Source: a virus. From it: DNA of 25,805 bases. The notes under the pieces are model-generated. The model ran no database searches. It was given only the letters and a program-made list of their open reading frames with translations, and was not told the origin of the DNA. Below, piece after piece: positions 158 through 21,309 of the stretch. The translations under genes were made by a program, and so were the position numbers. Where the stretch lies: positions 1-25,805 of the IMG/VR virus record IMGVR_UViG_3300017730_000068, one strand, 5' to 3'. Within the stretch, counting starts at the first letter, position 1; each line of letters begins with the position of its first letter.

Positions 158-378
158 TGAAAGACGCAACAATAATAGGGTTTCGGGTATTGATAGACTC
201 AGAGGGCTTGTTAGTTACTGAGCAGACTGAACTGCCAGATGAACATATAGCCAAGGTCTTTCGGGAGGAAGAATCTCAAGTATTAATTCGTGCGGCTATT
301 AGAGCCTTTAAAGAAATTACTGGAGATGTACATTCTAAACTGGAGACAGAGATAGACGCCATCAACAGGGTTTGCTAA
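157..378 (+). CDS. small hypothetical protein, last gene of the plus-strand operon
   Basis: This 73-residue protein starts at an ATG that overlaps the preceding stop (TAATG), so it is probably translationally coupled. It is mostly helical in appearance, with an acidic middle (FREEESQVLIRAAIRAFKEI) and no membrane segment, signal peptide or catalytic motif that I can see. It ends 17 bases inside the 3' end of the convergent minus-strand gene, so two opposite transcription units meet here. A minus-strand reading of the same bases exists but shows a less protein-like composition. Function unknown. Confidence 0.65.
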   Translation: MKDATIIGFRVLIDSEGLLVTEQTELPDEHIAKVFREEESQVLIRAAIRAFKEITGDVHSKLETEIDAINRVC

Positions 379-664
379 CATCCATTGCGGATGAGATAAG
401 CCCACCTGTATCAGCCCTATGGCGAGCAGTTTTCTTTGCAATCTTCTTAGGTTGCTTTGAAAATTGCTTGCCTTTTTTTGTGTCTTCTCTTTTCTTTGCA
501 GACGTTGCGGCATACTCTGCGGAGGACAAAGATTCTCTAGCACTCTTAGGAAGATAGCGTTCACCTGTAGCCTTTGAGCCTTGTGTAGAAGGCTTACCAG
601 ACTTAGTACCCCAATCTTCTTTTGTCCAATCCTTTAAGGATTGCTGAGACTTTTTAAGTGCCAT
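362..664 (-). CDS. small lysine-rich basic protein, last gene of the minus-strand operon
   Basis: This 100-residue protein is very rich in Lys, Ser and Thr. The N-terminal third reads SQQSLKDWTKEDWGTKSGKP, followed by TGERYLPKSARESLSSAEYA around residues 33-52 and KKGKQFSKQPKKIAKKTARH around residues 63-82. From memory this layout is common in small proteins of marine phage contigs; I know of no proven function. The charge would suit binding to nucleic acid or to the packaged genome (inference). The ATG at 662-664 overlaps the stop of the gene before it (TAATG). The TGA lies inside the end of the plus-strand gene, giving a tail-to-tail overlap of 17 bases. No other gene follows on this strand within the window. 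Confidence 0.75.
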   Translation of the reverse strand: MALKKSQQSLKDWTKEDWGTKSGKPSTQGSKATGERYLPKSARESLSSAEYAATSAKKREDTKKGKQFSKQPKKIAKKTARHRADTGGLISSAMDVSKPC

Positions 665-1218: not shown

Positions 1219-1485
1219 TTAATCTCCGGGCGGTAACGCCAATAATTTTTCGTTTGAAATTATCCAAGCCTTTGGAATCGCTATCTCTGCATCACCCTGC
1301 ACAGCCTTACCATCTTCAAGCAACATATGAGGACATATAATTATAAGGTCATCGTCCTCATGGATTACCATACCGCAAGAAACTGCTATAGCGGCTGTAA
1401 TCTGTTTGAGTTCGTTGATATCCCTCCAGCCCATGTTTGAGCCTCCAGAGGCATCGTGCCATACAATCTTACTGAGCGTTACCAC
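1219..1485 (-). CDS. small hypothetical protein with GTG start
   Basis: An 88-residue acidic protein. The first codon is GTG at 1483-1485, overlapping the last seven bases of the 1490-aa gene, with AAGG four bases upstream; no internal ATG preserves the conserved-looking start TLSKIVWHDASGGSNMGWRD. It looks like a compact alpha/beta domain: a W-rich opening, a helix (residues 24-35), a strand-turn-strand around GMVIHEDDDLIIICPHML, and an IPKAWII strand near the C-terminus. I have the impression of similar small proteins next to phage structural genes but cannot name a family. It has no cysteine pair or catalytic motif. It is probably coupled to the upstream gene by the overlap. Confidence 0.7.
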   Translation of the reverse strand: MVTLSKIVWHDASGGSNMGWRDINELKQITAAIAVSCGMVIHEDDDLIIICPHMLLEDGKAVQGDAEIAIPKAWIISNEKLLALPPGD

Positions 1486-4400
1486 TTGACCTTATCAGCC
1501 CAATAAGCCGCAGACATATTTCCACGCTTGATGTTCTTTCTGTGACGGGCTTTGAAGCTCTTGCGCTTGGCCTTCATACGCTTGGACTCACCAGACTTTG
1601 GCTTGCCAGCAGTCTTAGCGCCTTGTTCACCAAATCGTATAATCTTTTCTTTACCGTCTTTGCAGGCTTTGACAACATGAGACTTCTTAGGATGGTTAGG
1701 TGTGCGCTTAGGCTTGTTGCAGGCCATCTTCTTCTTGTCGATCTTGCCACCCTTGGCAACAGCAAAGCGTCTTGTAACACCGCCTGTGCTTTTACCAAAC
1801 CTTTCTACTAAATTTTCTTCTACAAAACTTTCAAATACGGCAGGATCTCCTTGAGCTTTATCATATAAATTAAAGCCCATAAAGTTGTTTTGTCTGTCGC
1901 CCGTTGCGCCATGAAAGCCGGTGTCCCCAAAAGCCTGTTGAACATATTCTTTACCCTGTAAAGCGGCTCTGGCTAAACTGTTATCGCCTGCCATCTTAGC
2001 TAATAACATATGATTAGCGGCGTTAAATACATCTCCAGCCAGCACACGCCCATCTTCAACCTTTACTCTTTCTCTTTCGTGTAAAGAGCCTTCATCAACA
2101 AGACGATTTACAAGCGCCATAGCTTCTGCTTCGTTTCGTCGTAGATCTTCTGCTCCGACACCAAAAAACTTTTCTGCGCCTTCTTCCATCAAACGAGAAA
2201 CCTTTGTTAAAAAACTACCGCCCTCTGCAAAGCCTGAACGATCTTCTTCGTCTGTAAAAGCTCCACCAGCCTGTTCAATATAAGGTCTTCCTGTCATCTT
2301 ATCTATGCGCTCATCAGGCTCATCAGGCGCTTGAGGTATTAAAACTTCTCCACCCTTTTTAAATGCGCTTCTGCTTGGCCCTTCTTCTTCATCAACAGGA
2401 ATTAAACGGGTGTATATGGCCTTGTCCCTAGCCTGTATTACTTCTGATTGATACCGCATAGCTTCTTCAGCCGTTACGTCTTTGAGTTTTAAAAACTCTT
2501 CTAGCTTTGGAACTTCTGGTAAATAGAATCTATTTCCTAAAATAGTATCAGCCGCTTTTTTACCAATCTGATCTGCAAGAAGGATACGCGCTTCATTTGG
2601 CTCCATGCGAGTCAGCACAGCATTCATCGTCATGTATAGGTCTTGTTGATATTTATAAAGATTTTCGTAGCGCGTCCTCATGTCTTCAACATAATCTTCG
2701 CCTTCAACGTCTGCCGCCAGCTTAGGCCGTGTCGTTTCTGATGCTTTATTTTTGTAGCCATCGCCTGCAAAATAAATGGCTTGTTCAGGTCGCATAAGTT
2801 TTGTAGGGATGCCTAACGCATTTCGTATGACTTCTGTTTCCAAATCTTTCTTTGGTGTGCGTACACCCGGATAAAGCTCACCGTCTGCGGCAATGCCTAT
2901 GTTTTGGAGGCTTGTTATGGTTCCCGGCACAAAGGCTTCAAACATATGATAAGCTATGTTTCCTAAAGCTTTTTCTGGATCGTCTGCTGGAATTAATTGT
3001 TGTCCAGTAGACGTTCTACCGTCTCCTGCGTAAGCCGTAATAATATCAGTAAAGGCTTCTGTAATAATTGCTTGATCTGTGTAAGGCGTTAAAGATTTTG
3101 CAACCCCCTCTAATATACCTACACCTATAGATTTAAGCTGGTTCTCGCCTTTTATTTCACCACGCATAATTCTGTCTGCCATCACCATAAAAGGTTCTTT
3201 GACAGTACTGTAAGAATCAATAAACTGCGTATCAATAGTTACAATTTCATCTCCCCAACGCACAGGAATTTTTGGAGCCTTAGACCACGGAGTATGTGAC
3301 ATTTCCTGTATAGCTTCGCTTTCTTCTTCGCTTAGTCCCATTGCCACTGCACCGATTTTGGCAGAGGTTGCCCAAAGACTATTTGTTGCTATGTATCCAC
3401 CAAGTCTTTGCATTCCACGGCGTTTAATAACAGGATTATCACTATTAATTTCTTTATGTCCCTGCTTTATAATGTTCCAACTGGTTCTAACAATTTCAGC
3501 AGGAAACGAAACAAAACTACCCACTGGCAAGAAGCGCAAAGATTTAATTCCGTTTGGAACTTTGTCATAGTTTGGAAAAGTATCTTGAACAATACTAGCG
3601 GCTTCTTTTTTGAGGTCATCTATAGGCGCATCAGGCATAGCCCTCCTTAAAAAATCAAGCTCTTTTTCAAAAGCATGTATCTTAAAGAAGTCATCAGTGC
3701 CTCTGTAAAGCTCTTCAGCGGCCTTATAAGTTTTAGATGCCCCACCCAATACTACTTCATCAGCCACATCCACAGCTTTTCCGACACGCCCGTAAGTAGC
3801 ATCTATTTTTGCAGTCTTATCGCCTGCTCGCATCCTAGCGGCATCATCAAAAAGAGTTCTAAATTCATTTAGGCGAACATTGGTGTTGATAATACCCAGC
3901 CCTAAATACTCTTCGTAAAGGCTGTCGAGTCCTTTATCGCCTCGTTTAGCGGCGGCGTTCATAAGAGTATTAAATACTTTTGCTTCTCCAATAGGAGAAA
4001 TACCATTAGCCAATCCAAACTGCACACCACCCATTAAGTTTCTCACATGAGTAGTCCAGCTACCAACAGTTTTCATAGCCTGTGATGTGGCTTTAGCAGA
4101 AGCAAAGAGCCTGACGCCTGCCATATCCTCATAACTTTCAAGGCGTGATTGTCGCCCAGCAATAGCAGTAGCAATCTCAGGCGTTGTGTACTTCCCATCT
4201 AGTGCCGTGCCAGTGCCTTCAATCTTTGTGTTGTAAAATATTTTACCTTTTCCATCACTAGTACCAAAAACACGTTTTTCATCAAAAATATAACTACCAC
4301 GAGCAGACTTCAAAAGATTTGCACCGAACTCAGCATTTTCTGCAAGTTGAGCCATTTTACTAATAGTAAGTACAATATTTTCTGTTGGGTTTTCAACCTC

Positions 4401-5951
4401 TCCTAACAACTCTCTAATTTCTTTAGGAAGCGTTTGATCTTTTCTTTTTAAAATGTCTCTGTTTATTTGAACATTCTTTGAATAAAAATCAAAAACATCT
4501 TCACTGCTGGTAGACTGCTCTAAAATTTCTTGAACTTTAATATATGCTTGCTCAAAGGCTTTGCCGTCTTCCAAGGTTTCATCTGCGTTCATCATTGCAG
4601 TTTGAATATACTTTGTAGCGTTGTGGATAACACTTTCAGAAGGGACGTAACCACCGTCTTCATAGGCACGATAAGAACGAGTCATATACTGTCCTACGTT
4701 CTGTCTAATAACTTCTCGTGCTTCATCGCTAGGAACAGTAGAGTTATATATTCTGGCTGAAAGATCATCAATCATTTCTCTAGCACGAACAATATCTGAA
4801 GCTACTTCTTGTGGAATATTTAAATCTGCCGCCACCCATTCAACCTTTGCGTCAAAAGAAGCTACAGGAGAAAACTCAAAGTCTTGAGTTAATGCACGAG
4901 TTAGTTTGCCTTCGTCTAACTGATCTACAGGAAGCTCATCAAGCGCCATGTTTAAGCGCGTTGCAATATTTTCTGCTTCACGAATAGTTTGTCTTTCTGC
5001 ATATTGCTTACCACGAAACATATTGTCTGCTTCTTCTGTCCAATAACCGCGAGAAGAAAACATCTGATTTAAAAATCTTTTGTACCACTTGCTATTTTGT
5101 TGTTCGACTTGAGCAACACTATTTGGGTTTGGACTAAACTCTACATCAGCGTGAATAGCAGAAGGAGCTATTTCAATTTCATTTTTGTTTTCGTCTATAA
5201 ATGTTAAAAGTTCGTCAGCCTGCTCATCAACACTGCTGTTTCTGTTAGGCATAAACTTTTTACCAACAATACCAACACCACTTAAAAATTTTTCAACGGC
5301 CCCACCTAAGATAACACCTTCAAGGCCCACCTTAAATCTTTGAGTTAGTACACTATCGCCTTCGTCTGTTGAAAGATATTCAATAGTATCTTTTAAAAAC
5401 TGACTTTCAATATCAAAAGAGTCTTCAATGCCCCTTGCTAGGTTGCCTTCGCCCTCTTGAAAATATAATTCTTCTGCAATTAATCCACTAGTCACACCTT
5501 TTTTAAAATCAGATATGTTGCTAACTCTATCTAGGGCTTTGAAGGCTCCTGCACCGCCAGCAACCAAAGTTCCAAGCTCTCCTACAGGGCCAGCAACGGT
5601 TGAATAGTCTTGATACTCTCCGCTTTCTGTAAGAACATCTTTTGGCTTAACACCCAACAAGGGCGCAAGGCCCTGAATAAATGTTTTTCTCATGTTAGTT
5701 CGCATTTCTGCATCAATAACATCATCTTCAGCGCCCAATGCTTTTGCCACAGGATTAACAAGAAAATCACTAATTACACTTACAGGCCCTTCTCCAGCCT
5801 TTGATAAAACCTGTGTCATATCAGTACGAAAATTACCTTCAGGCTCTTCATATTCTGTAGGTACAGGCGTAGGCGGCTTTACCGCTTCTTTAAAGGGGTC
5901 AAAGACACCTACTGTGTTTGGCTGTGCAAACGGATCATAAATATCAGCCAT
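1479..5951 (-). CDS. large internal virion / ejection-type protein (1490 aa)
   Basis: The longest gene here. A mostly helical 1490-residue protein without signal peptide. By size and place, last of the large virion genes after the tail and lysis modules, it matches the large ejected inner-core proteins of podoviruses (the T7 gp16 position), but I see no transglycosylase catalytic motif, so enzymatic activity is not claimed. Residues 700-1000 hold the best conserved-looking part, with KSLRFLPVGSFVSFPAEIVR near residue 860. The C-terminus is modular: FKKGGEV at 1197-1203, a patch ending YIEQAGGAFTDEEDR, a helical region at about 1270-1370 with H1314 and D1352/N1355/N1356, AVAKGGKI at 1397-1404, then an 82-residue Lys-rich tail beginning with Met 1409. 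The ATG overlaps the preceding stop (TAATG). Confidence 0.8.
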   Translation of the reverse strand: MADIYDPFAQPNTVGVFDPFKEAVKPPTPVPTEYEEPEGNFRTDMTQVLSKAGEGPVSVISDFLVNPVAKALGAEDDVIDAEMRTNMRKTFIQGLAPLLGVKPKDVLTESGEYQDYSTVAGPVGELGTLVAGGAGAFKALDRVSNISDFKKGVTSGLIAEELYFQEGEGNLARGIEDSFDIESQFLKDTIEYLSTDEGDSVLTQRFKVGLEGVILGGAVEKFLSGVGIVGKKFMPNRNSSVDEQADELLTFIDENKNEIEIAPSAIHADVEFSPNPNSVAQVEQQNSKWYKRFLNQMFSSRGYWTEEADNMFRGKQYAERQTIREAENIATRLNMALDELPVDQLDEGKLTRALTQDFEFSPVASFDAKVEWVAADLNIPQEVASDIVRAREMIDDLSARIYNSTVPSDEAREVIRQNVGQYMTRSYRAYEDGGYVPSESVIHNATKYIQTAMMNADETLEDGKAFEQAYIKVQEILEQSTSSEDVFDFYSKNVQINRDILKRKDQTLPKEIRELLGEVENPTENIVLTISKMAQLAENAEFGANLLKSARGSYIFDEKRVFGTSDGKGKIFYNTKIEGTGTALDGKYTTPEIATAIAGRQSRLESYEDMAGVRLFASAKATSQAMKTVGSWTTHVRNLMGGVQFGLANGISPIGEAKVFNTLMNAAAKRGDKGLDSLYEEYLGLGIINTNVRLNEFRTLFDDAARMRAGDKTAKIDATYGRVGKAVDVADEVVLGGASKTYKAAEELYRGTDDFFKIHAFEKELDFLRRAMPDAPIDDLKKEAASIVQDTFPNYDKVPNGIKSLRFLPVGSFVSFPAEIVRTSWNIIKQGHKEINSDNPVIKRRGMQRLGGYIATNSLWATSAKIGAVAMGLSEEESEAIQEMSHTPWSKAPKIPVRWGDEIVTIDTQFIDSYSTVKEPFMVMADRIMRGEIKGENQLKSIGVGILEGVAKSLTPYTDQAIITEAFTDIITAYAGDGRTSTGQQLIPADDPEKALGNIAYHMFEAFVPGTITSLQNIGIAADGELYPGVRTPKKDLETEVIRNALGIPTKLMRPEQAIYFAGDGYKNKASETTRPKLAADVEGEDYVEDMRTRYENLYKYQQDLYMTMNAVLTRMEPNEARILLADQIGKKAADTILGNRFYLPEVPKLEEFLKLKDVTAEEAMRYQSEVIQARDKAIYTRLIPVDEEEGPSRSAFKKGGEVLIPQAPDEPDERIDKMTGRPYIEQAGGAFTDEEDRSGFAEGGSFLTKVSRLMEEGAEKFFGVGAEDLRRNEAEAMALVNRLVDEGSLHERERVKVEDGRVLAGDVFNAANHMLLAKMAGDNSLARAALQGKEYVQQAFGDTGFHGATGDRQNNFMGFNLYDKAQGDPAVFESFVEENLVERFGKSTGGVTRRFAVAKGGKIDKKKMACNKPKRTPNHPKKSHVVKACKDGKEKIIRFGEQGAKTAGKPKSGESKRMKAKRKSFKARHRKNIKRGNMSAAYWADKVKW

Positions 5952-7453
5952 TATTGAATTCCGTATGTTTGGAAATAGTAGTCTTTTAATGCTTGCTCAG
6001 AAATACCTTCGTTTTCAGGCCGCGCTTTAGCCGCCTCTAAAAATTCTTCTAGAGTAGGGACTGCACGAGTTGGCGCTGACACGGCAGATGCTGGGCTTTC
6101 TAAACCTTGTGGTCTATTTGCTTGTGGTAGATTTACAGCTTCCTCGCGTAGATTTCTTGCATAGTCTGCAAAAGCTCTGTCATACTCTTTTCGCAATTCA
6201 GTAGTATCTTCTCCACGCCCTTCAGCCGTTTTTATTCTACTTAAAATCTTTGAGCCGTCTCCCTTCTCATCATGCCACCACCTAATACCATTATCAAAAA
6301 ATATTTTTCCTGCCTCTCCCAATTTATAGTTTGATGCGATTGATGCTACATCCATAAATATTTTAGTAAAAGTTTTATACTCTTCGTCAGTATCAATTTC
6401 AGCTAGAGTACTAATACCCGCATCTCCTAACCTACTAAATATTTGAGAGGTAGCATTGCCAATCAGATTTTTTTCAGAAAAGTCTGCCCAATTAAAAGAT
6501 TTCATGTTAGCAGTTACACGATCTTTTTCAGTAGATAGATCTAATTCTAAAGGCTCACCATTTTCACCCCTCATTATTTCTCGTGAGGGTTGTCCAAATT
6601 GAGTCCTTTTTCCGTCTGACCCAATATCGTAAGTTGTTTTTACTTTTATTCGGATTACTTTTTCGCCTGCTGTTATAAAGTCTTCAGTCTCAATAAGTTC
6701 TCTGCCTAATTTTGGATCAGATCTGTTTGACATAATATCATCTGCATACTGACTTGCTTTTGTAAAGTCTCTACTTCTCTGATACTCTTCGCCCAAGTGC
6801 TGAAATTTTCTAAGTAAATAACCACGGCTTGTAGGATCTTGATCGTCTATATACTCTTTTAATGATAAGATTTCTCTTTGGTCAGTATCTTCAATACCAA
6901 AACCTGAAAAAAAGCCTGTAAGCTTTCCAAGTAAAGCGTCTCTTACATTACTGGGTCTAGTTTCTTTTGCAATAGTATTTAACCTTTGTTGATCTTTACC
7001 TAAACTATTATCTTCAATAAAGGCTCTCATTTTAGTCAAGGCGGCTAGTTCTTGTTCAGCCATTTCTTTAGCGGCTTTATAAATAGTGCCTTGATAATGT
7101 TGTGTGCCTCTATCCTCAAAAGGTGTTTCATTTTTTATTTCTTCTTCAACAATAGGCGTATGCTTTTTAATTAAGAATTGAAGAGGTGTAGTACCAGAAG
7201 TATTTATTTGTTCCCAGACTCTAGCGTTTTCTGCGGCAAGAGTATCTGCCTTGCCAGCAATAGCATACCCTGACTTAAACTCAGTACTGTTCATAAAATC
7301 TTGGGTTCGTTGTGCTAAAACTTTATTGCCGATTGTAACACCAAGCCCCATAAGTGCTTTTTGCAAGACAGATCTTTCTTGTTCTTTTTGACGCTGTCTA
7401 TTCCGCTCACGTTGTTGAGCAAGTAAAGACTCTCCAAATGCTTCAATACCCAT
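5951..7453 (-). CDS. putative internal virion protein (500 aa)
   Basis: A 500-residue protein starting at ATG 7451-7453 with GAGG seven bases upstream. The first 35 residues are a very basic, Gln-rich helix (QQRERNRQRQKEQERSVLQK), followed by helical, strongly charged sequence without membrane segments until a short GKLTGFFSGFG stretch near residue 185. The C-terminal 40 residues are Pro/Ala-rich then helical, ending KDYYFQTYGIQ. No catalytic motif stands out. It lies between two other presumed internal virion genes with gaps of zero to two bases, and the stop shares a base with the next start. The assignment rests on position, length and helical composition. Confidence 0.65.
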   Translation of the reverse strand: MGIEAFGESLLAQQRERNRQRQKEQERSVLQKALMGLGVTIGNKVLAQRTQDFMNSTEFKSGYAIAGKADTLAAENARVWEQINTSGTTPLQFLIKKHTPIVEEEIKNETPFEDRGTQHYQGTIYKAAKEMAEQELAALTKMRAFIEDNSLGKDQQRLNTIAKETRPSNVRDALLGKLTGFFSGFGIEDTDQREILSLKEYIDDQDPTSRGYLLRKFQHLGEEYQRSRDFTKASQYADDIMSNRSDPKLGRELIETEDFITAGEKVIRIKVKTTYDIGSDGKRTQFGQPSREIMRGENGEPLELDLSTEKDRVTANMKSFNWADFSEKNLIGNATSQIFSRLGDAGISTLAEIDTDEEYKTFTKIFMDVASIASNYKLGEAGKIFFDNGIRWWHDEKGDGSKILSRIKTAEGRGEDTTELRKEYDRAFADYARNLREEAVNLPQANRPQGLESPASAVSAPTRAVPTLEEFLEAAKARPENEGISEQALKDYYFQTYGIQ

Positions 7454-7455
7454 TT

Positions 7456-8046
7456 TTACACCTCGTTTTCAGGTTCTGCTAAAAGGCTTGCTGGGCCTTC
7501 TTCTTCTTCTACACCTTCTTCAATATCCATTTCTTCAGCGGTAGGAAGACCTTTTATCTTACCCTGTTCTTCTAAAGAAATATAAGGCAGTCTAATTCCA
7601 AGCTCTTTAAACTTTTTAATATTATTAAGTTTTTCTTCTTTCATAGAGTTACCAAAGAACATTTCTTCTTCAACTTCTTCAGTTCCTTCGCCTCTAAAAA
7701 TAGTTGGATCAATACCCGCCCTTTCTGCGAGTGCTAAAATAATGTATGCCGTAGGCTCTGCAAGAAGCATCATTAAATCAACAGTCCACTTTCCTTGAGT
7801 AAAGCCCTTAAATAAGAAAACTTGAGCAATATCCATAACAGGCATATCATCAAGTAGAACCTCTATAAGTTGCTCATAGTTTTCTTCTTGAATAAACTGA
7901 GTAAAAATCCACTCTGTTGCTTTGTGTATAGTTGTATACTCAGGAGGTTGCTCGTAGGGGGCAGGGTTATCAGGATCAGACGTAAGACTCTGTCCCGGTA
8001 TAGCCCGACCACCGTTGATTAGTACATCAAAATATTGTTCATTCAT
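7456..8046 (-). CDS. phage structural protein (196 aa)
   Basis: A 196-residue acidic protein. Its N-terminal part, GRAIPGQSLTSDPDNPAPYE then PPEYTTIHKATEWIF, and the middle LLDDMPVMDIAQVFLFKGF followed by TQGKWTVDLMMLLAEPT, strongly remind me of a virion-associated protein found in marine cyanophages and related contigs; that is memory, not a search result. The final 25 residues are almost all Glu, Gly and Ala. No signal peptide; residues 110-130 are hydrophobic but look like a buried helix more than a membrane span. It sits between the 431- and 500-aa genes and its ATG overlaps the stop of the former (TAATG). Confidence 0.7.
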   Translation of the reverse strand: MNEQYFDVLINGGRAIPGQSLTSDPDNPAPYEQPPEYTTIHKATEWIFTQFIQEENYEQLIEVLLDDMPVMDIAQVFLFKGFTQGKWTVDLMMLLAEPTAYIILALAERAGIDPTIFRGEGTEEVEEEMFFGNSMKEEKLNNIKKFKELGIRLPYISLEEQGKIKGLPTAEEMDIEEGVEEEEGPASLLAEPENEV

Positions 8047-9341
8047 TAGCCTAACGCCCTTTGCATATACTCAGGATAAATATTAAAAAAGTTTGCTGTA
8101 GCCCCATAAGCATTAGAAGCCATTTGACCTCTGTAAGCATTAAAGAACTGCTCTGGCTGGCCCGTGTTTAACTCTTGACCAATACTGGTTGTTGAACCCA
8201 TATCAAGCGCCGGTACTGCAATAGCGTACTGGTTGTATTGATACTCAGGAACGTCTTCTAGTCCTATAGCTTGCATACCTTTACTTAGTACACCTTCAGC
8301 AACAGTTCTTGGCGCACCAGCTATAAGATCCCCAACGCCTGCTCTAGCTTCTGCTATATTGCCTGCAACATCTCGACCAGTTACAAATTCACTGGCCTTC
8401 TCTAAGAAAGACTTGTCTGGGGCTACTGCCGCTTTACCAGAAGCAAAGAAAGGGTCTGCCGCCGTACCTGAACCACCCTGTTGGGCAATATTTTCAGCTA
8501 AGGCTTCTGCAATATTTCCAGCACTACCAGAAACAGGGGCCTTTGCTACAGCTTGCATATTCTGAAAACCCATATTAAGATCTCTTGATAGCAAAGACGA
8601 TGATGGTGGCCCCATTTCATAAGTTATACCGCCAATTTCACCAACAGGCCCAAAAGGATCTGGAGAAAGGTTTGGCGCTCTAACAACTGTTTCGCCTATT
8701 GGACTTGTAACATCAAAAGCTGTTGCAGAATCAATCTGTCCTTGCAAGCCTTCAGAAACTTCTGTTATGTTACCCATCTGGTCTTGAGCTAAAGCTGTAG
8801 CTGTAGGATCACCAACAGGCTGAGAGATATCAAAAATACTTTTACCCGCTTCTGTTATGTTTCCAAAAGACTTTTGAGCATTTGTAAAAACTCCTCCCCA
8901 ACCATCAACATCCATATTAACACCAAGCTTACTTAATCCCTGACCAAGTGTACTGTCAACGGTGATTCCAAGATTTTTAGCCGCCGCACCAATTGTATCC
9001 CCTACAACCTGTGTAACGCCATCAGTAATACTACTAAAAAACTTACCAGTATTAGAAGCAACCTTTACAGCGCCTTGAATAAAACTAGAGGCCGCTTGAC
9101 CAACAGCACCCATGCCCTGTAAACTTCCTGCAAGCCCACCAACAACTCCGGGCGTTGTACCTACCAACATTCCCGATAGGATTTGCCCGACCCCCGGCAG
9201 GACTAGAGCAAGACCAATTTGACCAATAATGCCAATCTTACCCATAAATTTTCCAATAGACTTAAAGGCACTTTTAATTCCTTTGCCAATCTTTTTAAAG
9301 ACTTTCTTTACGCCTTTAAATATTTTTTTAAAAAATCCCAT
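8046..9341 (-). CDS. virion protein with cationic amphipathic N-terminus (431 aa)
   Basis: The protein starts at ATG 9339-9341 behind a strong GGAGG. Residues 3-35 have Lys every three to four residues (12 Lys in the first 35) between Phe/Ile/Val positions, the pattern of a membrane-active amphipathic helix. Residues 36-62 (IGIIGQIGLALVLPGVGQIL and onward) are hydrophobic and Gly-rich, enough to insert in a membrane. The remainder is Gly/Ala/Ser-rich, low in charge and without known domains; it ends with NIYPEYMQRALG. Place and composition suggest an internal protein ejected with DNA and able to contact or cross the host membrane, which is inference. It is flanked by the repeat-rod gene and the 196-aa gene. 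Confidence 0.7.
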   Translation of the reverse strand: MGFFKKIFKGVKKVFKKIGKGIKSAFKSIGKFMGKIGIIGQIGLALVLPGVGQILSGMLVGTTPGVVGGLAGSLQGMGAVGQAASSFIQGAVKVASNTGKFFSSITDGVTQVVGDTIGAAAKNLGITVDSTLGQGLSKLGVNMDVDGWGGVFTNAQKSFGNITEAGKSIFDISQPVGDPTATALAQDQMGNITEVSEGLQGQIDSATAFDVTSPIGETVVRAPNLSPDPFGPVGEIGGITYEMGPPSSSLLSRDLNMGFQNMQAVAKAPVSGSAGNIAEALAENIAQQGGSGTAADPFFASGKAAVAPDKSFLEKASEFVTGRDVAGNIAEARAGVGDLIAGAPRTVAEGVLSKGMQAIGLEDVPEYQYNQYAIAVPALDMGSTTSIGQELNTGQPEQFFNAYRGQMASNAYGATANFFNIYPEYMQRALG

Positions 9342-9343
9342 GC

Positions 9344-12300
9344 TTATATACCTCCACCCGGACTCGTGAACAAGCTATCAATCATATTAGTTAGTGTACT
9401 TATAGTTGTATTACTACTATTTCCAGCCGCCGCCTCATTACCAAGAGCCACAGCATACAACTGAGTCTGTCTAGTTTGGTTATTTTCATATGCTTGATTT
9501 ACATAGTTAGCCTCATCTCTTACGGTCTGCCAAGTATTTTGTTGCTGTTGCATAGTAAGTGCAAAAGCATTCTGAGCATTTTGCTGGGTCATAGCATTAT
9601 CAGCGGCTGTCTCAGCCAAAGCAACTTGACGCCTCCAAGCAATATCAGATTGAGCAATAGCATTCGCGTTTGCCGCATTAAACTGTTCGCGGTTAAAGTC
9701 TTGGGCAGAATTAAACTGTTCAGCCTGTAAAGTCATTTGAGCGGTTGCAATTCTTTCAGAACTACTAGCGCGTAATTGTGCGGCCTCAACTGCCGCACTA
9801 GCACCTATTCCAGCACTTTGTACTTGAGCATCAGCACCAATCTGAGTAGTTGTTATGCGTGTTTCTGCATCTAAGTCAGCAAGCTTTTGTCTATTAAGTG
9901 CATCAGCATTGTACTGCGACATAGCATTTGCTTGTTGAGCATTAAACTGTCTTATCTGTGCCGCCAGATTTTCATTAAACTGATTAATTTGATTTGTACT
10001 TTGAGCATTGAATTGCTTTGCGGCATTGCTCATAGACTGATTAGACAACAAAGTTTGTTGCATCATTTGAGCATCAAGTACTACTGCCTGTTGACGGTTG
10101 TTTAAGTTTGTCATATCCATCTGCAAAAAGGCTTGAGCATTTTGAGAGGCAAGTCTTGTTTGGTTATTAGCATTAGTAAGATCTAAAGACGCCATTGCCG
10201 CCGCATTTTGCATAGCCGCCTGTTGACGATTATTTAAATCTTGCATAGTCATAGACTGCATAAACTTGCTGTTAGCCATAGCAACCTGTTGTTCTGCACT
10301 AAACTGAGCCAGATCCACTTTTGCAACCATTGAAGCATTTTGAACAGCACGTTGCTGATCTACATTCAATTGTGCAACATTCATTTGACTTGCTATCTGA
10401 GCCTGAAGCATATTAGTCTTCATACGAGAATCAAGATTTGCAAGTCTTGTTTGTTGTTCAGCCGTCAGGTTTTCTGAGCTTGCTTGATTTAAAGCAGTCA
10501 GATTTGCAAGTTCCATTTGCTGTTCGTTACTAAGGTTTGCCAACTCCATCTGTTGCTTAAAGCCTGCATTCTTAGCAAGAAAGTCTGCGGCAGTCTGCAT
10601 CTCAACAAGCCGTGACTGATTCTCAGCAGACATATTCGCCGCATTAGTTTGGAACTCAAACTGAAGATTAGCTAATTCAGTCTGCTGTTCATTACCTAAG
10701 TTTTGAGCATTGATGGCCTGTTGGTTTTGAACATTCTGTACTGCTGATTGCTGACGATTCTGAAGGTTCGCCATTCTAGTCTGCTGTGCTTGAGCCGCAG
10801 TAGCAATCATTGCGTCTTGTGCAAACTGACTCTGAAGCACTGACATTTGCTGTGCCATCTGAGCCGTCTGAGAAGCCGCTGTCTGACGATTAGCAGTGTT
10901 TTGTAGCCTTCGCTGTGCGTCTAAGTTAGCTTGCTGTACATTGGCTTGTTGCTCGTTTGAGAGGTTCTGAGCAGACCTTTGCTGTAGTGCTTGTGCATTA
11001 GACTGAGCAATAGGCATAGCACTTTGAATAATAGAATTTAAAAGTGCATCACGGCCTACTGTAGAAGCCGTCAAGCCTCTTTGCTCTAGCATTCTATTTA
11101 CTTGTTCTACTGCTGGTCTAGCCCATACAGGAACTTCACCATCTTCAATGCCTCCAAGCAGTGTCTCCATCTGTGAAGATACAAGAGCCTCTGTCGGTAA
11201 AGCCGCTACAGCCGCTTGTATTTCTATAGGTTCGTCATCTATTTGAGCTTCAACAGTTTGAGGATCTTCAACGATGGTTGCGCTAATTTCTGGAGGAAGT
11301 TCTCCAACTTCTGCGACCATGTCTGCCGCCGCACCTTTAGCCGCCGTACCTTTTACTTGACGTACTTGAGCCGCTTCATAATTTAAAGTTTCTAAAATCT
11401 GAGCGGCTTCTGCATCTTCAGCGGCTTTACCAATAATTGCTCTACGTTGAGCAACTTCTGCTTCTTTTGTAGGCGCAACCTCTGTGGTCTTGCCCGTGAC
11501 TTTATCAACATAAGCACCGTCAGAAATTTCGTACTGTGCGGCTACTGCTAGTGCCGCCTGCTCTTGTGCGGCATCTCTTCCTGCCGCTACAGCCCTTTCA
11601 GTTAAAGCCTGTGGTTGAAACTGAGCAATAGCGCCTTCGCTGAGTTCGCCTTGCTGTGCTTCGACAGTCGGTACATCTGCCTCATCAATAAGTGTTGCAT
11701 CATACGTATCGACTTCTACAGTATTAGGCGCATCTACGTCTGTAAGCCCAGCTTGAGCAACACCTGACTCTGTAAGTGTTGGGTCTACGCTAGGTGGTGG
11801 CGGCGGCATCACAGTGCTTGTTTCTGGCGATGCTGGCCTTGGCCCCCCCGTTGTGGGTATTAAAGCGCCTTGTTGCCTTCCGGGTGGAGGAGGCATTACG
11901 GTGCTTGTTTCTGGTGGCCTTGGCCTTGGCCTTGGTCTTCCTTCTGCTTCTAATAGAGCGCCCTGTTGCATTCCGGGTGGGGGAGGCATAGACGCATCTT
12001 TTTTACTTTGTTCGGCCTGTAATTTTTTCATATCTGCGATTGCTTGAGGACTCATCATCCTACCGCCTGTTTGAGCCGCATAACGAATACCGCCTTTTCT
12101 AGCACCATCACGACCTTCTTCGTCTTCTTCTTTTTTTTCTTCTTCTTTATATAAGTCTGGCATTGAAACTTTACGAATGTTTTCTTCTTTCATTTCTGTA
12201 AAAGGAGTAGTAGATAAATTAGGATCGTCTACATTTACTTTTTTTAATGTAGGTTTAAATTCTTCAGACAAATCTTCTACTGTAACAGGATCAGGATATT

Positions 12301-12583
12301 CAAAACTTTCCCATACAGAAGAGCCGGGAGATTTAGGACGATTAGGATCTTTAGAGGGTATATAAGGTGTACCATCTTCTGTCTGTGTGCTAGTAAGCGC
12401 CCCCTGACCAAGTTGCCCCTTAATCTTGCTGGTGTCCATATTCAAATAGAATTTTTCGCCATTTACCATCATATAGGGCTTACCGTCCTCATCAATCTGA
12501 ATATTAGGCAAACCTGAAAATGCCTTAACTCTTTGAGGCTTTTTATGTCTAGCGACTTTTCTTGCTTTTTGCTTTTTAGCCAT
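9344..12583 (-). CDS. 1079-aa Gln/Asn/Ala-rich coiled-rod structural protein
   Basis: Starts at ATG 12581-12583 with GAGGA eight bases upstream. Layout: a basic N-terminus (MAKKQKARKVARHKKPQRVK), an acidic segment to residue 160, two Pro-rich direct repeats (199-264), an Ala/Glu-rich segment (290-480), a short conserved-looking block near 495-530 (VPVWARPAVEQVNRMLEQRG), then 46 to 47 perfect-length 11-residue units to residue 1046 and a 33-residue tail ending FTSPGGGI. Eleven-residue periodicity is the mark of a hendecad coiled coil, giving a long straight rod. I recall Q/N-rich proteins like this in marine phage structural modules without a proven role. It may be a fibre, a core rod or an ejected tube; position among internal virion genes favours the last two. 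Confidence 0.75.
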   Translation of the reverse strand: MAKKQKARKVARHKKPQRVKAFSGLPNIQIDEDGKPYMMVNGEKFYLNMDTSKIKGQLGQGALTSTQTEDGTPYIPSKDPNRPKSPGSSVWESFEYPDPVTVEDLSEEFKPTLKKVNVDDPNLSTTPFTEMKEENIRKVSMPDLYKEEEKKEEDEEGRDGARKGGIRYAAQTGGRMMSPQAIADMKKLQAEQSKKDASMPPPPGMQQGALLEAEGRPRPRPRPPETSTVMPPPPGRQQGALIPTTGGPRPASPETSTVMPPPPPSVDPTLTESGVAQAGLTDVDAPNTVEVDTYDATLIDEADVPTVEAQQGELSEGAIAQFQPQALTERAVAAGRDAAQEQAALAVAAQYEISDGAYVDKVTGKTTEVAPTKEAEVAQRRAIIGKAAEDAEAAQILETLNYEAAQVRQVKGTAAKGAAADMVAEVGELPPEISATIVEDPQTVEAQIDDEPIEIQAAVAALPTEALVSSQMETLLGGIEDGEVPVWARPAVEQVNRMLEQRGLTASTVGRDALLNSIIQSAMPIAQSNAQALQQRSAQNLSNEQQANVQQANLDAQRRLQNTANRQTAASQTAQMAQQMSVLQSQFAQDAMIATAAQAQQTRMANLQNRQQSAVQNVQNQQAINAQNLGNEQQTELANLQFEFQTNAANMSAENQSRLVEMQTAADFLAKNAGFKQQMELANLSNEQQMELANLTALNQASSENLTAEQQTRLANLDSRMKTNMLQAQIASQMNVAQLNVDQQRAVQNASMVAKVDLAQFSAEQQVAMANSKFMQSMTMQDLNNRQQAAMQNAAAMASLDLTNANNQTRLASQNAQAFLQMDMTNLNNRQQAVVLDAQMMQQTLLSNQSMSNAAKQFNAQSTNQINQFNENLAAQIRQFNAQQANAMSQYNADALNRQKLADLDAETRITTTQIGADAQVQSAGIGASAAVEAAQLRASSSERIATAQMTLQAEQFNSAQDFNREQFNAANANAIAQSDIAWRRQVALAETAADNAMTQQNAQNAFALTMQQQQNTWQTVRDEANYVNQAYENNQTRQTQLYAVALGNEAAAGNSSNTTISTLTNMIDSLFTSPGGGI
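9446..10996 (-). repeat. 33-bp-period repeat encoding 46-47 hendecad units
   Basis: Reading the minus strand, residues 530-1046 of the 1079-aa protein divide into 11-residue units with no insertion or deletion. Typical units are LSNEQQMELAN, LTAEQQTRLAN, LQNRQQSAVQN, LNNRQQAAMQN and FSAEQQVAMAN. A 22-residue super-period is visible where LNNRQQ-type and AxxMxSxDLTN-type units alternate. Position 1 is usually Leu, Ala or another hydrophobic residue and position 11 is mostly Asn. The bases have diverged well beyond the protein pattern, so selection acts on protein length and spacing. The repeat lies wholly inside the gene. Confidence 0.85.
11792..11989 (-). repeat. Pro-rich tandem duplication inside the 1079-aa gene
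   Basis: Two consecutive segments of about 30 residues, each running from MPPPPG through QQGAL to PETSTV, followed by a third MPPPPP start. In DNA this appears as near-identical stretches of about 90 bp. The copies differ in the middle (RPRPRPRP against TGGPRPAS). It is probably an extended flexible linker between the N-terminal part and the helical rod. Confidence 0.8.
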
Positions 12584-12594
12584 TTATATATTCC

Positions 12595-12954
12595 TCAGTA
12601 CGACCAGATTGCAGGAGATGGAAAAACTTCTTCTGCCATATCTAAGTGTATAAATCGTCCTTTTCCTTTTTGATTAACACCTATTCTTTTTACACCATGC
12701 TTCATGGCGACCTCAAGAACCTTTAAAGCTTTATCTCCGCTTACAGCTATATCAACTGCACACCCTGTTGTATGTGCGCCTACGCGACTTTTAGAAGCCT
12801 CTATAGGGTGTTCAACACATCTGTAACCAGAGCTAATAACAAAAGGAAAATCACATTCTTCTCTAATGTTATTTAAAACCTTTAAAAATTCGTCATCAAA
12901 CTTATAAGTACCGCAGTGTTGACAACTCAACTCTTCTTTTGTAAAGTAACTCAT
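12595..12954 (-). CDS. M15-type peptidase, candidate endolysin
   Basis: A 119-residue protein with the hallmarks of the D-Ala-D-Ala carboxypeptidase-like M15 fold (Hedgehog/DD-peptidase superfamily). It has SSGYRC at 41-46, AHTTGCAVD at 60-68 (zinc ligands H61 and D68) and FIHLD at 101-105 (third ligand H103). The expected Glu/Asp base before the last His is not obvious to me. The N-terminus has CQHCG at 11-15, a small two-Cys motif seen in phage members of this family. It is short for the family but complete. It would cut peptidoglycan cross-links or stem peptides for lysis. It follows the holin gene by one base, which supports that role. No signal peptide, so it would depend on the holin for access to the wall. 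Confidence 0.85.
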   Translation of the reverse strand: MSYFTKEELSCQHCGTYKFDDEFLKVLNNIREECDFPFVISSGYRCVEHPIEASKSRVGAHTTGCAVDIAVSGDKALKVLEVAMKHGVKRIGVNQKGKGRFIHLDMAEEVFPSPAIWSY

Positions 12955-12955
12955 T

Positions 12956-13351
12956 CTAGTCTCTAGCGACTTTTTTAGTTTTCTCTACAGTTCTCATAGC
13001 TCCTAAACCCAACATACCCAAAAGTACTGGCATCATTTCAGAGATATCTAAATTAGGCATGACAACATCTATGCCAGCCAAAGCACAACCAAAGTTACCG
13101 ATAGGCACGATAATAAAATTAAACCCCATACCGGCAACACAAATCCAACCTGTCGCTGGACGCCATCCAGACACAAAGATACTAGAGTGTTTAGCTTCTT
13201 CACGATTAATTGATATTTGTTCTTTAGCCAATTCATGGGCGTGTCTTGTAGCCATTGTAGAAATTTCATGAGCTAACCTCGCTTTTTCATCCGCATCAGG
13301 AATGAATTTGTCTAAAAGGCCCGAAATCGGGCCTACTAGCATTTCTAACAT
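12956..13351 (-). CDS. holin of the 3TM gene-transfer-agent type
   Basis: A 131-residue membrane protein. Residues 20-55 form a charged amphipathic helix (DEKARLAHEISTMATRHAHE). SGWRPATGW at 61-69 is the signature I associate with the 3TM holin family of gene transfer agents and marine phages. Hydrophobic spans follow at about 68-85 and 107-121, with a weaker one around 86-98, and the tail is basic (EKTKKVARD). It would permeabilise the inner membrane to release or activate the adjacent peptidase. AAGG lies nine bases before the ATG. It is directly upstream of the M15 peptidase on the transcript, the classic holin-endolysin order. Confidence 0.85.
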   Translation of the reverse strand: MLEMLVGPISGLLDKFIPDADEKARLAHEISTMATRHAHELAKEQISINREEAKHSSIFVSGWRPATGWICVAGMGFNFIIVPIGNFGCALAGIDVVMPNLDISEMMPVLLGMLGLGAMRTVEKTKKVARD

Positions 13352-18928: not shown

Positions 18929-20539
18929 TTATCTCCTACCTGATGGCATATAATCTATATAAAAACCATTTACACCATACGGGCTACTTGTATCGTTTGA
19001 TCGTAGGCGTATACTGAATGTGTTGCCACTGCCTGTAACTGTTTGTCGGAACATAGGATCAGATCCCGCCCCAAATGAAGCCACGCCAAAAACAGCATCA
19101 CCAAATGTCCCCGGAAGAGGTATAGTTGATAGTGTTATATCTGAAGGCTGTGGTATGTCTAAATCTTTGTAATCATACCGCAACCTTAAAACTGGCTGTA
19201 ATGTTCCTTCAGGTGAAAATGATGTGCGAATATATTTTAAAGTTTTACGTGTCCCTATATCTCCACAATCAATGTCAGGTGTTTCATAAGTCGCTAAGAT
19301 ATTAGCTTCACTACCGTCATGTAGAAATGAATCGCCTGTATCGTGGTTATAAACGTATCCATCTTTGTCACCATGAAAAGCAACTTCTACTACATCTTTA
19401 TTAAAGTCTGACGTAATGCCTAATGCTTGTATACCTAAAGTTTCTGACCACTCAAACCCCTGACCTGTAAATGTTCCTATAACGCCTTTTGCTACTCCGG
19501 GTTCTTGAGAGGTTGTAGAATAAAATAAACGATATTGGGATTTAGATCGAAGCACAGCACTTGTAATAACAAACTGTCCTGCTCGTGATGCTAAAGAACT
19601 TATAATATCTTGTATCTGTCGAGATACAGAACTTAACTCAACGTCACCAATACGGGCTGTACCAGCAATAGTGCGGATACCGTCTGGTGCTAAAAAGACT
19701 AGATCACCCCCTACTTCTTGAATAGAGTAGTGTGAAAGACACCCTACATTTTCTGTAATTGGATCTATGCGAATATTTGAGCTATCATTTATATTTATAA
19801 GTTTTTGAATACTATTTTTAGAAAAAACAATTAGATTTTCACGGAAGCTCTTGACACCCTGTACTTGATCTGTTATGGCTACAGAACCAGAACCACTACC
19901 ACTAAAGTCATCAATGTCATTATAGACACTATAAAACACAGTGTTTAAATTATCTTCTACTCCAGCGGCAATTAAGTGATGATCGTGAACCGTTACATAC
20001 TTTACGCCTTTAGTTCCTGTAACAGTAATTTCAGACGCAAAGAAAGTTCTTGAACTAACTGCACCGCCTGTGCCTTCCATTCTAAATAAAAATGGTTTAT
20101 TGCTTCCATCAGCGATTACTATCTCGCCATAATCAAAGTCAGCACCTTCAAACAAAGCAAATGTGCATTGGCCTTGAGTAGAGCGTGTAAGAACTGAGCG
20201 GCCTGTAAATGTTGTGTGGTTGTCGCCACTACCTGAAACACTATCCCTGTTTATTTGTAACCAGCTTGTGCCGTTGTTACTAAAAAATATATCAGTGCCA
20301 GAGCAAACAATAACGCCATCACCATATGCCGCCAGACCTAAAATAGGATTAGAGCTATTAGGTTGTGCAGAAGAACCACCACCGTAGGCTGTAAAGCCAT
20401 TTACACGGCGATAGCCACCATCAGGATCAACCTCAAAGTTTTCTAGTACTTTGGCAAAACCCGGCTGACCTAATACCTCAATAGAGTTTAAGTTTGTGTT
20501 AAGCCCACCTCTACATGAAAACCCAAAAGCCTGAGACAT
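18929..20539 (-). CDS. tail tubular protein B-like / tail hub beta-propeller protein
   Basis: A 536-residue beta-rich protein. N-terminal GGLNTNLNSIEVLGQPGFAK then LENFEVDPDGGYRRVNGFTA is the opening I associate with podovirus tail nozzle proteins (T7 gp12-like or P22 gp10-like). The rest consists of repeated strand patterns ending in G-x-G turns (GLAAYGDGVIVCSGTDIFF, KSFRENLIVFSKNSIQKL, DLVFLAPDGIRTIAG, KYIRTSFSPEGTLQPVLRL), as expected of a beta-propeller. It should form the distal hexameric tail tube to which fibres attach. It lies between the connector gene and the fibre genes, as in podoviruses, with a TAATG overlap to the connector. Confidence 0.8.
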   Translation of the reverse strand: MSQAFGFSCRGGLNTNLNSIEVLGQPGFAKVLENFEVDPDGGYRRVNGFTAYGGGSSAQPNSSNPILGLAAYGDGVIVCSGTDIFFSNNGTSWLQINRDSVSGSGDNHTTFTGRSVLTRSTQGQCTFALFEGADFDYGEIVIADGSNKPFLFRMEGTGGAVSSRTFFASEITVTGTKGVKYVTVHDHHLIAAGVEDNLNTVFYSVYNDIDDFSGSGSGSVAITDQVQGVKSFRENLIVFSKNSIQKLININDSSNIRIDPITENVGCLSHYSIQEVGGDLVFLAPDGIRTIAGTARIGDVELSSVSRQIQDIISSLASRAGQFVITSAVLRSKSQYRLFYSTTSQEPGVAKGVIGTFTGQGFEWSETLGIQALGITSDFNKDVVEVAFHGDKDGYVYNHDTGDSFLHDGSEANILATYETPDIDCGDIGTRKTLKYIRTSFSPEGTLQPVLRLRYDYKDLDIPQPSDITLSTIPLPGTFGDAVFGVASFGAGSDPMFRQTVTGSGNTFSIRLRSNDTSSPYGVNGFYIDYMPSGRR

Positions 20540-21309
20540 TAGACAAGCCTCATGCGATCATCTTTGATGTACTTGGGTGCTGGAAACATTAGAGCATTCT
20601 TCATAAGTCGTAAGCCTCTACGATATTCTTCTAAGGCTAGTGCGGCTGGCTGAATATTTTCTTTAAACTGATGCACGTAATATCTAGCTCGTGCAAGTAA
20701 AACAGTTTTGTAAATATCAGGGAATACAATTGTATCGCCATGCGCTGATAGTTGTGTAGGCTGATTAAAAGCAAAAAAATGAACTTTGTATACTTTGTCA
20801 GGTATAGGACTTAATCCAAAATTACGCCCATCGCTACTACGAAAAACTCTGCGAGGTTCACCACCATTAGCATCGCCAGCATCGTCTTGATTTTCTTTAG
20901 CACGATGATAGTCTTTCCATTCTTCTAAGGTTATAAACTTTAGGTTTTGACTGACGTAGGGGGCTGTTTCGCCTGATACGCCTACTGTAGTCATATAAAA
21001 GTCATCCCAATCTACATAACCGTAATCATCCACCAAAGACGAACTAGCGGCTTTGATTTCGTACCAGCGTTGATTGGCAACAGTTTCTACAGTTACATTA
21101 CCATACAGCGGATCTGTTGAGCCGCTTTCACCTACAGAAAGAAAAGGCCACTGAGGTTCTTCAAGAACAATGTCAAGGTATGCTCTGTTGACACAATCTT
21201 GAGCGTGTGCTTGAAGACCAATAGCAGAAGAAAAATTACTAGAGGTTAATACAACCTCGTTCATTTCTCTTAGTAATTCATTTGTAAGCTGTAGGTATGT
21301 AGTCGCCAT
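20539..21309 (-). CDS. head-tail adaptor, tail tubular protein A-like
   Basis: 256 residues. N-terminal TYLQLTNELLREMNEVVLTS and CVNRAYLDIVLEEPQWPFLS correspond to the start of T7 gp11-type and P22 gp4-type adaptor proteins: an N-terminal helix bundle followed by a beta-rich middle (LKFITLEEWKDYHR, VFRSSDGRNFGLSPIPDKVY). The C-terminal segment ALALEEYRRGLRLMKNALMF is a helix that packs on the portal in that class. It should form the ring beneath the portal. It follows the capsid and neck micro-genes and precedes the tail hub gene, which fits exactly. The ATG overlaps the stop of the 48-residue gene before it (TAATG). Confidence 0.8.
   Translation of the reverse strand: MATTYLQLTNELLREMNEVVLTSSNFSSAIGLQAHAQDCVNRAYLDIVLEEPQWPFLSVGESGSTDPLYGNVTVETVANQRWYEIKAASSSLVDDYGYVDWDDFYMTTVGVSGETAPYVSQNLKFITLEEWKDYHRAKENQDDAGDANGGEPRRVFRSSDGRNFGLSPIPDKVYKVHFFAFNQPTQLSAHGDTIVFPDIYKTVLLARARYYVHQFKENIQPAALALEEYRRGLRLMKNALMFPAPKYIKDDRMRLV

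What the first reader, a model, noticed from the sequence alone, without database searches (positions are those of the whole stretch)
8046..9341. Antimicrobial-peptide-like N-terminus on a virion protein
Twelve Lys in the first 35 residues alternate with Phe/Ile/Val in a helix-compatible pattern, followed by a Gly-rich hydrophobic span. Podoviruses need proteins that cross the host envelope during ejection; this layout would suit membrane insertion from the virion side. It is adjacent to the hendecad rod protein, so the two may form one ejection device.
Basis: partly seen in the sequence, partly recalled or inferred. Interest (0 to 1): 0.5.

Follow-up and report, generated by a model that had tools for sequence, protein, structure and literature searches.

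The report
Phage injection protein with peptide-like tip
A marine short-tailed phage carries, in the gene block where related phages keep their DNA-injection proteins, a protein that begins with a strongly conserved, positively charged, membrane-seeking helix followed by an oily stretch; some SAR11-phage relatives place a fatty-acid-attaching enzyme gene directly beside it.

Summary
On the minus strand (9341->8046) a 431-aa protein ('X') starts with 12 Lys and no acidic residue in 35; helical hydrophobic moment 0.73 against 0.19 for shuffles. A hydrophobic Gly-rich span follows. The pattern is conserved: 93 of 99 readable slots found through the neighbouring gene met fixed criteria, 3 missed narrowly, 3 lacked it. 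G37, G40 and P49 are (nearly) invariant.
X lies in a syntenic block (hendecad rod, X, acidic 196-aa, 500-aa, 1490-aa protein) of HMO-2011-type podoviruses, resembling SU10's five ejection-protein genes. Best explanation: an ejection protein whose N-terminus inserts into a host membrane. Virion location and activity are inferred. Against universality: 17 of 21 cultured relatives keep the block without X.
Unexpected: in SAR11-type phages an HlyC-family acyltransferase gene lies between rod and X (20 of 49 HlyC contigs); the family is in 15 of 25 such records and 0 of 37 of the window's type and X-less relatives. X may be lipidated there. The HlyC catalytic His seems absent. Resemblance to tape-measure proteins was compositional.

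The parts
8046..9341 (-). X: 431-aa cationic/hydrophobic N-terminus protein (P0001)
   Evidence: 51 IMG/VR relatives; 105 non-redundant relatives at 90%
9237..9335 (-). residues 3-35, cationic amphipathic helix
   Evidence: moment and charge; AlphaFold2 helix; conservation; purifying selection
9153..9236 (-). residues 36-63, Gly-rich hydrophobic span; G37 and G40 invariant, P49 in 99%
   Evidence: hydropathy; AlphaFold2 weak here
8832..9104 (-). residues 80-170, predicted helices 80-123 and 147-170 (confident from about residue 100); T106 nearly invariant
   Evidence: no fold match
9344..12583 (-). 1079-aa Q/N/A-rich rod; hendecad repeats at residues ~500-1000
7456..8046 (-). 196-aa acidic partner gene (net charge -27), overlaps X by one base; helical domain about 20-115
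   Evidence: used as anchor for the census
5951..7453 (-). 500-aa fourth protein of the block
1479..5951 (-). 1490-aa giant fifth protein of the block, C-terminus phrog_7595
18929..20539 (-). nozzle/stabilization-like tail protein (phrog_5107/3287), shared with HMO-2011-type phages
20539..21309 (-). SU10-type adaptor protein
   Evidence: Pfam PF24175

Best explanation
X is most likely an internal virion (ejection) protein of an HMO-2011-type podovirus, stored in the head and released through the tail with its block partners (rod, acidic 196-aa, 500-aa and 1490-aa proteins). Outside the head its 33-residue lysine helix would bind the anionic outer or inner membrane surface and its Gly-rich span (36-63) would enter the bilayer, anchoring or opening the membrane end of the conduit that the rod and giant protein extend. 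SHOWN: helix pattern, hydrophobic span, conservation, synteny, block membership. INFERRED: virion location, membrane insertion, order of action, contact with the rod.
For: Charge and moment far above shuffles; 93 of 99 readable slots reached through the neighbouring gene pass (only 8 of those 93 start MGFFKKIF), against 1 of 438 other plus-strand ORFs. The N-terminal 50 residues are the most conserved part (entropy about 1.1-1.3 against about 2.6-3.2 beyond residue 150), G37/G40 100%, P49 99%; pN 0.18 against pS 0.67. Block order rod-X-196aa-500aa-giant conserved; adaptor and nozzle-like genes of SU10/HMO-2011 type. In SU10 gp20-24 are in virions and absent after release (PMC9509320, passages). 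DEV gp73, a pore-forming ejection protein, is also strongly basic with a predicted TM helix (PMC10925440, passages). An HlyC-family acyltransferase gene lies immediately upstream of X in SAR11-phage relatives.
Against: No proteomics seen for any member. No detectable homology of X or its partners to T7 gp14/15/16 or SU10 gp20-24 (single-sequence templates). 17 of 21 cultured relatives lack X yet keep the block. The hydrophobic span is interrupted by Gly/Pro and poorly modelled. Rod C-termini are not significantly more hydrophobic in X-less phages (7 against 48 rods, p = 0.11), so no compensating membrane part was found.
Confidence: 0.58

Rival explanations
1. The lysine helix is a docking element: it packs by charge and hydrophobic face against the acidic rod or 196-aa protein inside the head, and X is an assembly or adaptor piece with no membrane role.
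For: Rod net charge -38, 196-aa protein -27 in the window; strict co-occurrence with both in X loci; the 3-4 residue spacing of the hydrophobic face also fits a coiled coil.
Against: Rod and 196-aa homologues persist in 17 of 21 cultured relatives without X, and the 196-aa family is acidic throughout (-34 to -7 over 57 members, with and without X); the invariant hydrophobic Gly-rich span is unexplained; acyltransferase linkage points to membranes.
Confidence: 0.18
2. The lysine helix binds packaged DNA, placing X among the genome coils or on the leading DNA end.
For: Net +12 and no acidic residue in residues 5-36; T7 gp15 and gp16 bind DNA in vitro (PMC8954989, passages).
Against: A continuous Phe/Ile/Val face and a following hydrophobic span are not needed for DNA binding; moment and hydropathy are kept while sequence diverges.
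Confidence: 0.12
3. X is not in the virion but acts late in the producing cell as a membrane-active lysis or host-weakening protein; the holin and M15 peptidase genes lie close by.
For: Holin and M15 peptidase genes lie at 12595-13351, just before the rod; AMP-like chemistry.
Against: X is packed between block genes (one-base overlap with the next) and moves with the block, while lysis genes vary in place.
Confidence: 0.08

Closest known systems
Outer-membrane ejection proteins of podoviruses (T7 gp14, P22 gp7, Schitoviridae DEV gp73)
   Same: Position in an ejection-type gene block; basic and hydrophobic membrane-entering character (DEV gp73: basic, predicted TM helix, forms pores; PMC10925440, passages).
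   Different: No homology to T7 gp14 (P22 gp7 and DEV gp73 not compared by sequence); X is 310-514 aa against about 200; the charge is packed in one N-terminal helix.
SU10 (Kuravirus) ejection proteins gp20-gp24
   Same: Five consecutive genes near the nozzle gene, ending in a 551-aa and a 1473-aa protein as 500 and 1490 aa here; adaptor of the SU10 Pfam family; gp21/gp22 are Q/N-rich like the rod (seen by eye).
   Different: No pairwise homology by hhalign; none of gp20-24 has a cationic N-terminus (net charge of first 40 residues -1 to +2).
HMO-2011-type morphogenesis module
   Same: 196-aa and nozzle-like genes match HMO-2011, CRP phages, pelagiphages, CHOED, phiM6 in the same order.
   Different: Most cultured members have a short or unrelated non-cationic gene instead of X.
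Cationic alpha-helical antimicrobial peptides such as cecropin (recalled)
   Same: Lys-rich amphipathic helix, then Gly-containing hydrophobic segment.
   Different: Part of a 431-aa phage protein; convergence in chemistry, not kinship.
HlyC/ApxC lysine acyltransferases (partner gene in relatives only)
   Same: PF02794 at 58.2 and 54.6 bits (cut-off 25); ApxC 4whn E 1.6e-8.
   Different: No toxin gene seen alongside; catalytic His (recalled) apparently not kept; not in the window.

Membership tests
Podovirus ejection (internal virion) protein | gene in the late block with other ejection proteins, near tail/nozzle genes | tested here: inconclusive
   place and gene sizes fit, but the block's other members are themselves ejection proteins only by analogy
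Podovirus ejection (internal virion) protein | present in virion, absent after DNA release | not testable with these tools
   needs virion proteomics; none found in the papers read
T7 gp14 / SU10 gp20-24 families | sequence/profile homology | tested here: not met
   X against T7 gp14-16 and SU10 gp20-24, best listed probability 0.2%; templates were single sequences, so distant kinship is not excluded
Tape measure protein | homology beyond composition | tested here: not met
   47 of 98 members hit phrog_1272; but reversed sequences hit tape-measure PHROGs with E down to 5.4e-5 (5 of 5 reversed with at least one hit at E<=0.05)
Cationic amphipathic alpha-helical membrane peptide | net positive, high helical moment, continuous hydrophobic face | tested here: met
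Cationic amphipathic alpha-helical membrane peptide | binds or permeabilises membranes | not testable with these tools
   leakage assay needed
HMO-2011-type module | homologous nozzle-like and 196-aa genes in order with rod and giant genes | tested here: met
HlyC acyltransferase (partner in relatives) | PF02794 above curated cut-off | tested here: met
   two proteins; 15 of 25 records over cut-off
HlyC acyltransferase (partner in relatives) | catalytic His and Asp (recalled from ApxC/HlyC work) | tested here: inconclusive
   acid kept as D or E; the His lies outside the local alignment, and by ungapped extension an invariant Tyr stands there
HlyC acyltransferase (partner in relatives) | acylates lysines of a neighbouring membrane-active protein | not testable with these tools
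   adjacency only

The most novel reading that the evidence does not exclude
In a lineage of SAR11 phages the ejection protein X is lipidated: an HlyC-family enzyme encoded between rod and X attaches acyl groups to the lysine-rich (or N-terminal MG) segment of X, so that it inserts into the host envelope on release. The window's lineage would do the same job with the unmodified cationic helix. This would be a virion protein activated in the way RTX cytolysins are.
Probability: 0.27. Interest if true: 0.85.

Novelty: new variant of a known kind. Interest (0 to 1): 0.6.

Why it matters
How short-tailed phages cross the envelope of abundant marine bacteria is little studied, and the proteins of this block are mostly annotated as hypothetical in the records opened, although 383 IMG/VR stretches carry a relative of the 196-aa protein. 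A compact, strictly conserved cationic helix gives a directly testable membrane segment. The linked HlyC-type gene offers a concrete, cheap test (intact-mass shift on co-expression) of whether phages lipidate injection proteins, which the papers found here do not mention.

Tried and rejected
Search bias: the first 51 relatives came mostly through the pattern MGFFKKIF, so they could not test the pattern. I re-anchored on the 196-aa neighbour. That sample is still not the whole group: one search kept the best 80 of 383, its query was built from X-bearing loci, and several contigs occur in both sets.

Tape-measure kinship: many PHROG hits, rejected by the reversed-sequence control.

Rod C-terminus as substitute membrane part in X-less phages: not supported (p = 0.11).

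The acidic 196-aa protein as a dedicated neutralising chaperone of X: it persists without X.

Fold searches: X against viral models and the 196-aa protein against the PDB gave nothing with E <= 0.001. PDB sequence hits of the X profile (rotavirus VP4 and others, best E 0.0028) start at profile position 61 or later and look compositional.

Homology to T7/SU10 ejection proteins: none. P22 was fetched but not compared.

Prophage or host link: one relative in genome contigs, a Sphingobacteriales MAG contig, possibly a binned virus.

Criteria changes: hydropathy cut-off 1.2; 1.0, chosen after seeing three near misses; one search also lowered the length limit to 100 aa.

Full report
WHAT IS THERE. 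The window is an IMG/VR virus record of 25,805 bases. The named ORF is on the minus strand, 9341->8046, 431 aa. Its first 35 residues hold 12 Lys, no Arg, no Asp/Glu, 6 Gly and 14 large hydrophobics; the rest of the protein has only 11 more Lys. Chance by composition is 8.6e-9, and 0 of 20000 shuffles show such a window anywhere. The helical hydrophobic moment of residues 2-33 is 0.73 (shuffles 0.19 +/- 0.10) and peaks at 99 degrees. Hydropathy then peaks at 1.94 over residues 42-60. AlphaFold2 on 98 sequences gives one helix 3-35 (block pLDDT 79-88 for residues 1-30), a poorly modelled 31-90, confident helices at about 100-170, and little else (mean 62.7, pTM 0.32).

SURROUNDINGS. Adaptor (Pfam SU10_adaptor) and nozzle-like genes, fibres, holin and M15 peptidase precede a block of five genes: rod (1079 aa), X (431), a 196-aa acidic protein, 500 aa and 1490 aa. 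X and the 196-aa gene overlap by one base, as do the 500- and 1490-aa genes. The rod's 11-residue repeat is real (lag-11 identity 0.233 against about 0.10). In 51 IMG/VR relatives of X the rod is found in 50 and the 196-aa protein in 46; the missing ones lie at cut contig ends. The 196-aa and nozzle-like proteins find the HMO-2011-type podoviruses among cultured phages: 23 and 29 records.

IS THE PATTERN A PROPERTY OF THE FAMILY? The first relatives were mostly selected by MGFFKKIF, so they are circular evidence. I anchored on the 196-aa neighbour instead: 113 loci, of which 99 had a readable slot. With fixed criteria (net charge at least 8 in 40, 18-mer moment at least 0.55, a 19-mer of hydropathy at least 1.2 within the first ~110 residues, at least 150 aa) 93 passed, three missed on hydropathy alone (1.12-1.19), and three, HMO-2011 itself and two close relatives, lacked it; 14 were too short. 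Of the other plus-strand ORFs of at least 150 aa in these loci, 1 of 438 passed. Only 8 of the 93 begin MGFFKKIF, so charge and moment persist while letters change. In 105 non-redundant members (of 143 pooled) the first 50 columns are the most conserved, with G37 and G40 in 100% and P49 in 99%. Over 666 pairs pN is 0.18 and pS 0.67 for codons 2-47 (37 of 43 sequences given had the window's register and were used). Several contigs occur in more than one sample, and one search kept 80 of 383, so the 93 of 99 describes the relatives nearest to the X-bearing type.

WHERE IT IS ABSENT. All 21 distinct cultured phages found by the 196-aa protein were opened (two further records are RefSeq duplicates). 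Four carry X: HTVC103P, HTVC104P, HTVC115P and Slicky01 (hydropathy cut-off relaxed to 1.0). Seventeen have something else between rod and 196-aa gene: 60-75-aa proteins or a short unannotated ORF (HMO-2011, CRP-1, -212, -235, -345, -738, three Rhizobium phages, phiM6), 114-147-aa proteins (CHOED, MQM1, Aeromonas 1233, HTVC033P), or a transglycosylase-domain protein, an annotated cell wall hydrolase or other 300- and 147-aa genes (CRP-13, CRP-603, CRP-2). X is thus a module option. I looked for compensation in the rod C-terminus and found none.

WHAT IT PROBABLY DOES. In SU10, whose adaptor family this phage shares, five proteins gp20-24 are in the virion and gone after release, and are called ejection proteins (PMC9509320, passages read). 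The block here has the same number of genes and similar terminal sizes (551/1473 aa there, 500/1490 here), but hhalign found no homology for any of the five against SU10 or T7 proteins, so this is analogy of layout. In the N4-like phage DEV the pore-forming ejection protein gp73 is basic with a predicted transmembrane helix, and its authors suggest that the basic residues bind lipid A (PMC10925440, passages). A lysine helix plus hydrophobic span at the very N-terminus of X fits the same task. Steps shown: sequence pattern, conservation, position. Steps inferred: in the virion, released, bound to anionic membrane, span inserted, joined to rod and giant protein. I put this at 0.58.

AN UNEXPECTED NEIGHBOUR. 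In HTVC115P a gene annotated toxin-activating lysine-acyltransferase lies between rod and X. Pfam HlyC (PF02794) matches it at 58.2 bits and a metagenomic counterpart at 54.6 (cut-off 25); ApxC is the solved relative (E 1.6e-8). Among 49 IMG/VR contigs with this gene, 20 have it immediately before an X (1-15 nt between; a rod-like C-terminus before it where the sequence reaches), 25 have it beside small genes like those next to it in HTVC103P, where a putative ssDNA-binding gene follows, and 4 before a large tail protein with a hydrophobic N-terminus (HTVC103P and siphophage-like examples). The 49 include near-identical contigs. Over whole records the family is over cut-off in 15 of 25 records (21 of the 29 loci plus HTVC103P, HTVC104P, HTVC115P and Slicky01): by the places beside X and three elsewhere (HTVC103P, HTVC104P, one contig). 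Of the 10 without, 9 are contigs of 15.6-42.1 kb and the tenth is Slicky01. It is in 0 of 37 records of the window's type and of X-less cultured relatives (nothing rang in that call, but the same model rang). All six INPHARED hits are Pelagibacter phages. HlyC enzymes acylate lysines of pore-forming toxins (recalled); here the neighbour is the lysine-rich protein X. Against: the enzyme's recalled catalytic His is apparently not kept (an invariant Tyr by ungapped extension), the acid is D or E, and in some genomes the gene lies in an early region. I give lipidation of X in that lineage 0.27. It does not apply directly to the window, where no such gene was found; the record may be a fragment.

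CONTROLS THAT CHANGED MY MIND. Members of the family hit tape-measure PHROGs in numbers (47 of 98 for phrog_1272), which looked like a link to siphophage membrane-spanning tails; reversed sequences hit tape-measure families too, with E down to 5.4e-5. I withdrew the link.

LITERATURE. Ten searches of the held library (listings and abstract starts only) and passages of nine papers (PMC10386132, PMC6918029, PMC9509320, PMC10925440, PMC8954989, PMC13320782, PMC8528129, PMC10504331, PMC7029224; passages only) showed no description of X or of an acyltransferase linked to ejection genes. [quoted passage not shown] Subscription papers are mostly not held.

VERDICT. New variant of a known kind, with a bolder acylation hypothesis in one lineage.

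Noticed in passing
L180:2193-2642 and 20 of 49 loci L191-L239: HlyC-family (PF02794) acyltransferase gene directly upstream of X in SAR11-type phages; other copies lie in early regions.
   Followed up: partly
L241:8001-8387, L242:7986-8399, L196, L197, L238, L239: In small SAR11 siphophage-like genomes the HlyC-like gene lies between a minor tail protein and a large tail protein beginning with MG and a hydrophobic N-terminus.
   Followed up: partly
window 1479-1763: Basic C-terminus of the 1490-aa protein (residues 1405-1490) matches phrog_7595, a 96-position family; matches in SIO1, S-CBS2, CRP phages and others cover only this part, so here it seems fused to the giant protein.
   Followed up: no
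window 362-664 and 664-879; L053:8379-8984: Small basic proteins resembling genes that in HTVC104P lie between X and the 196-aa gene; seen by eye.
   Followed up: no
window 1479-5951: Giant protein weakly matches genes annotated as virion-associated RNA polymerase (E 3e-7, OR838459) and ADP-ribosyltransferase (E 7e-37, OR779980) in other phages.
   Followed up: no
L185:3071-4012, L182:3611-4489: Some X-less Roseobacter phages carry an annotated cell wall hydrolase or a transglycosylase-domain protein in the slot of X.
   Followed up: no
L243: One relative of X in a Sphingobacteriales MAG contig (44.8 kb), possibly a binned phage.
   Followed up: no
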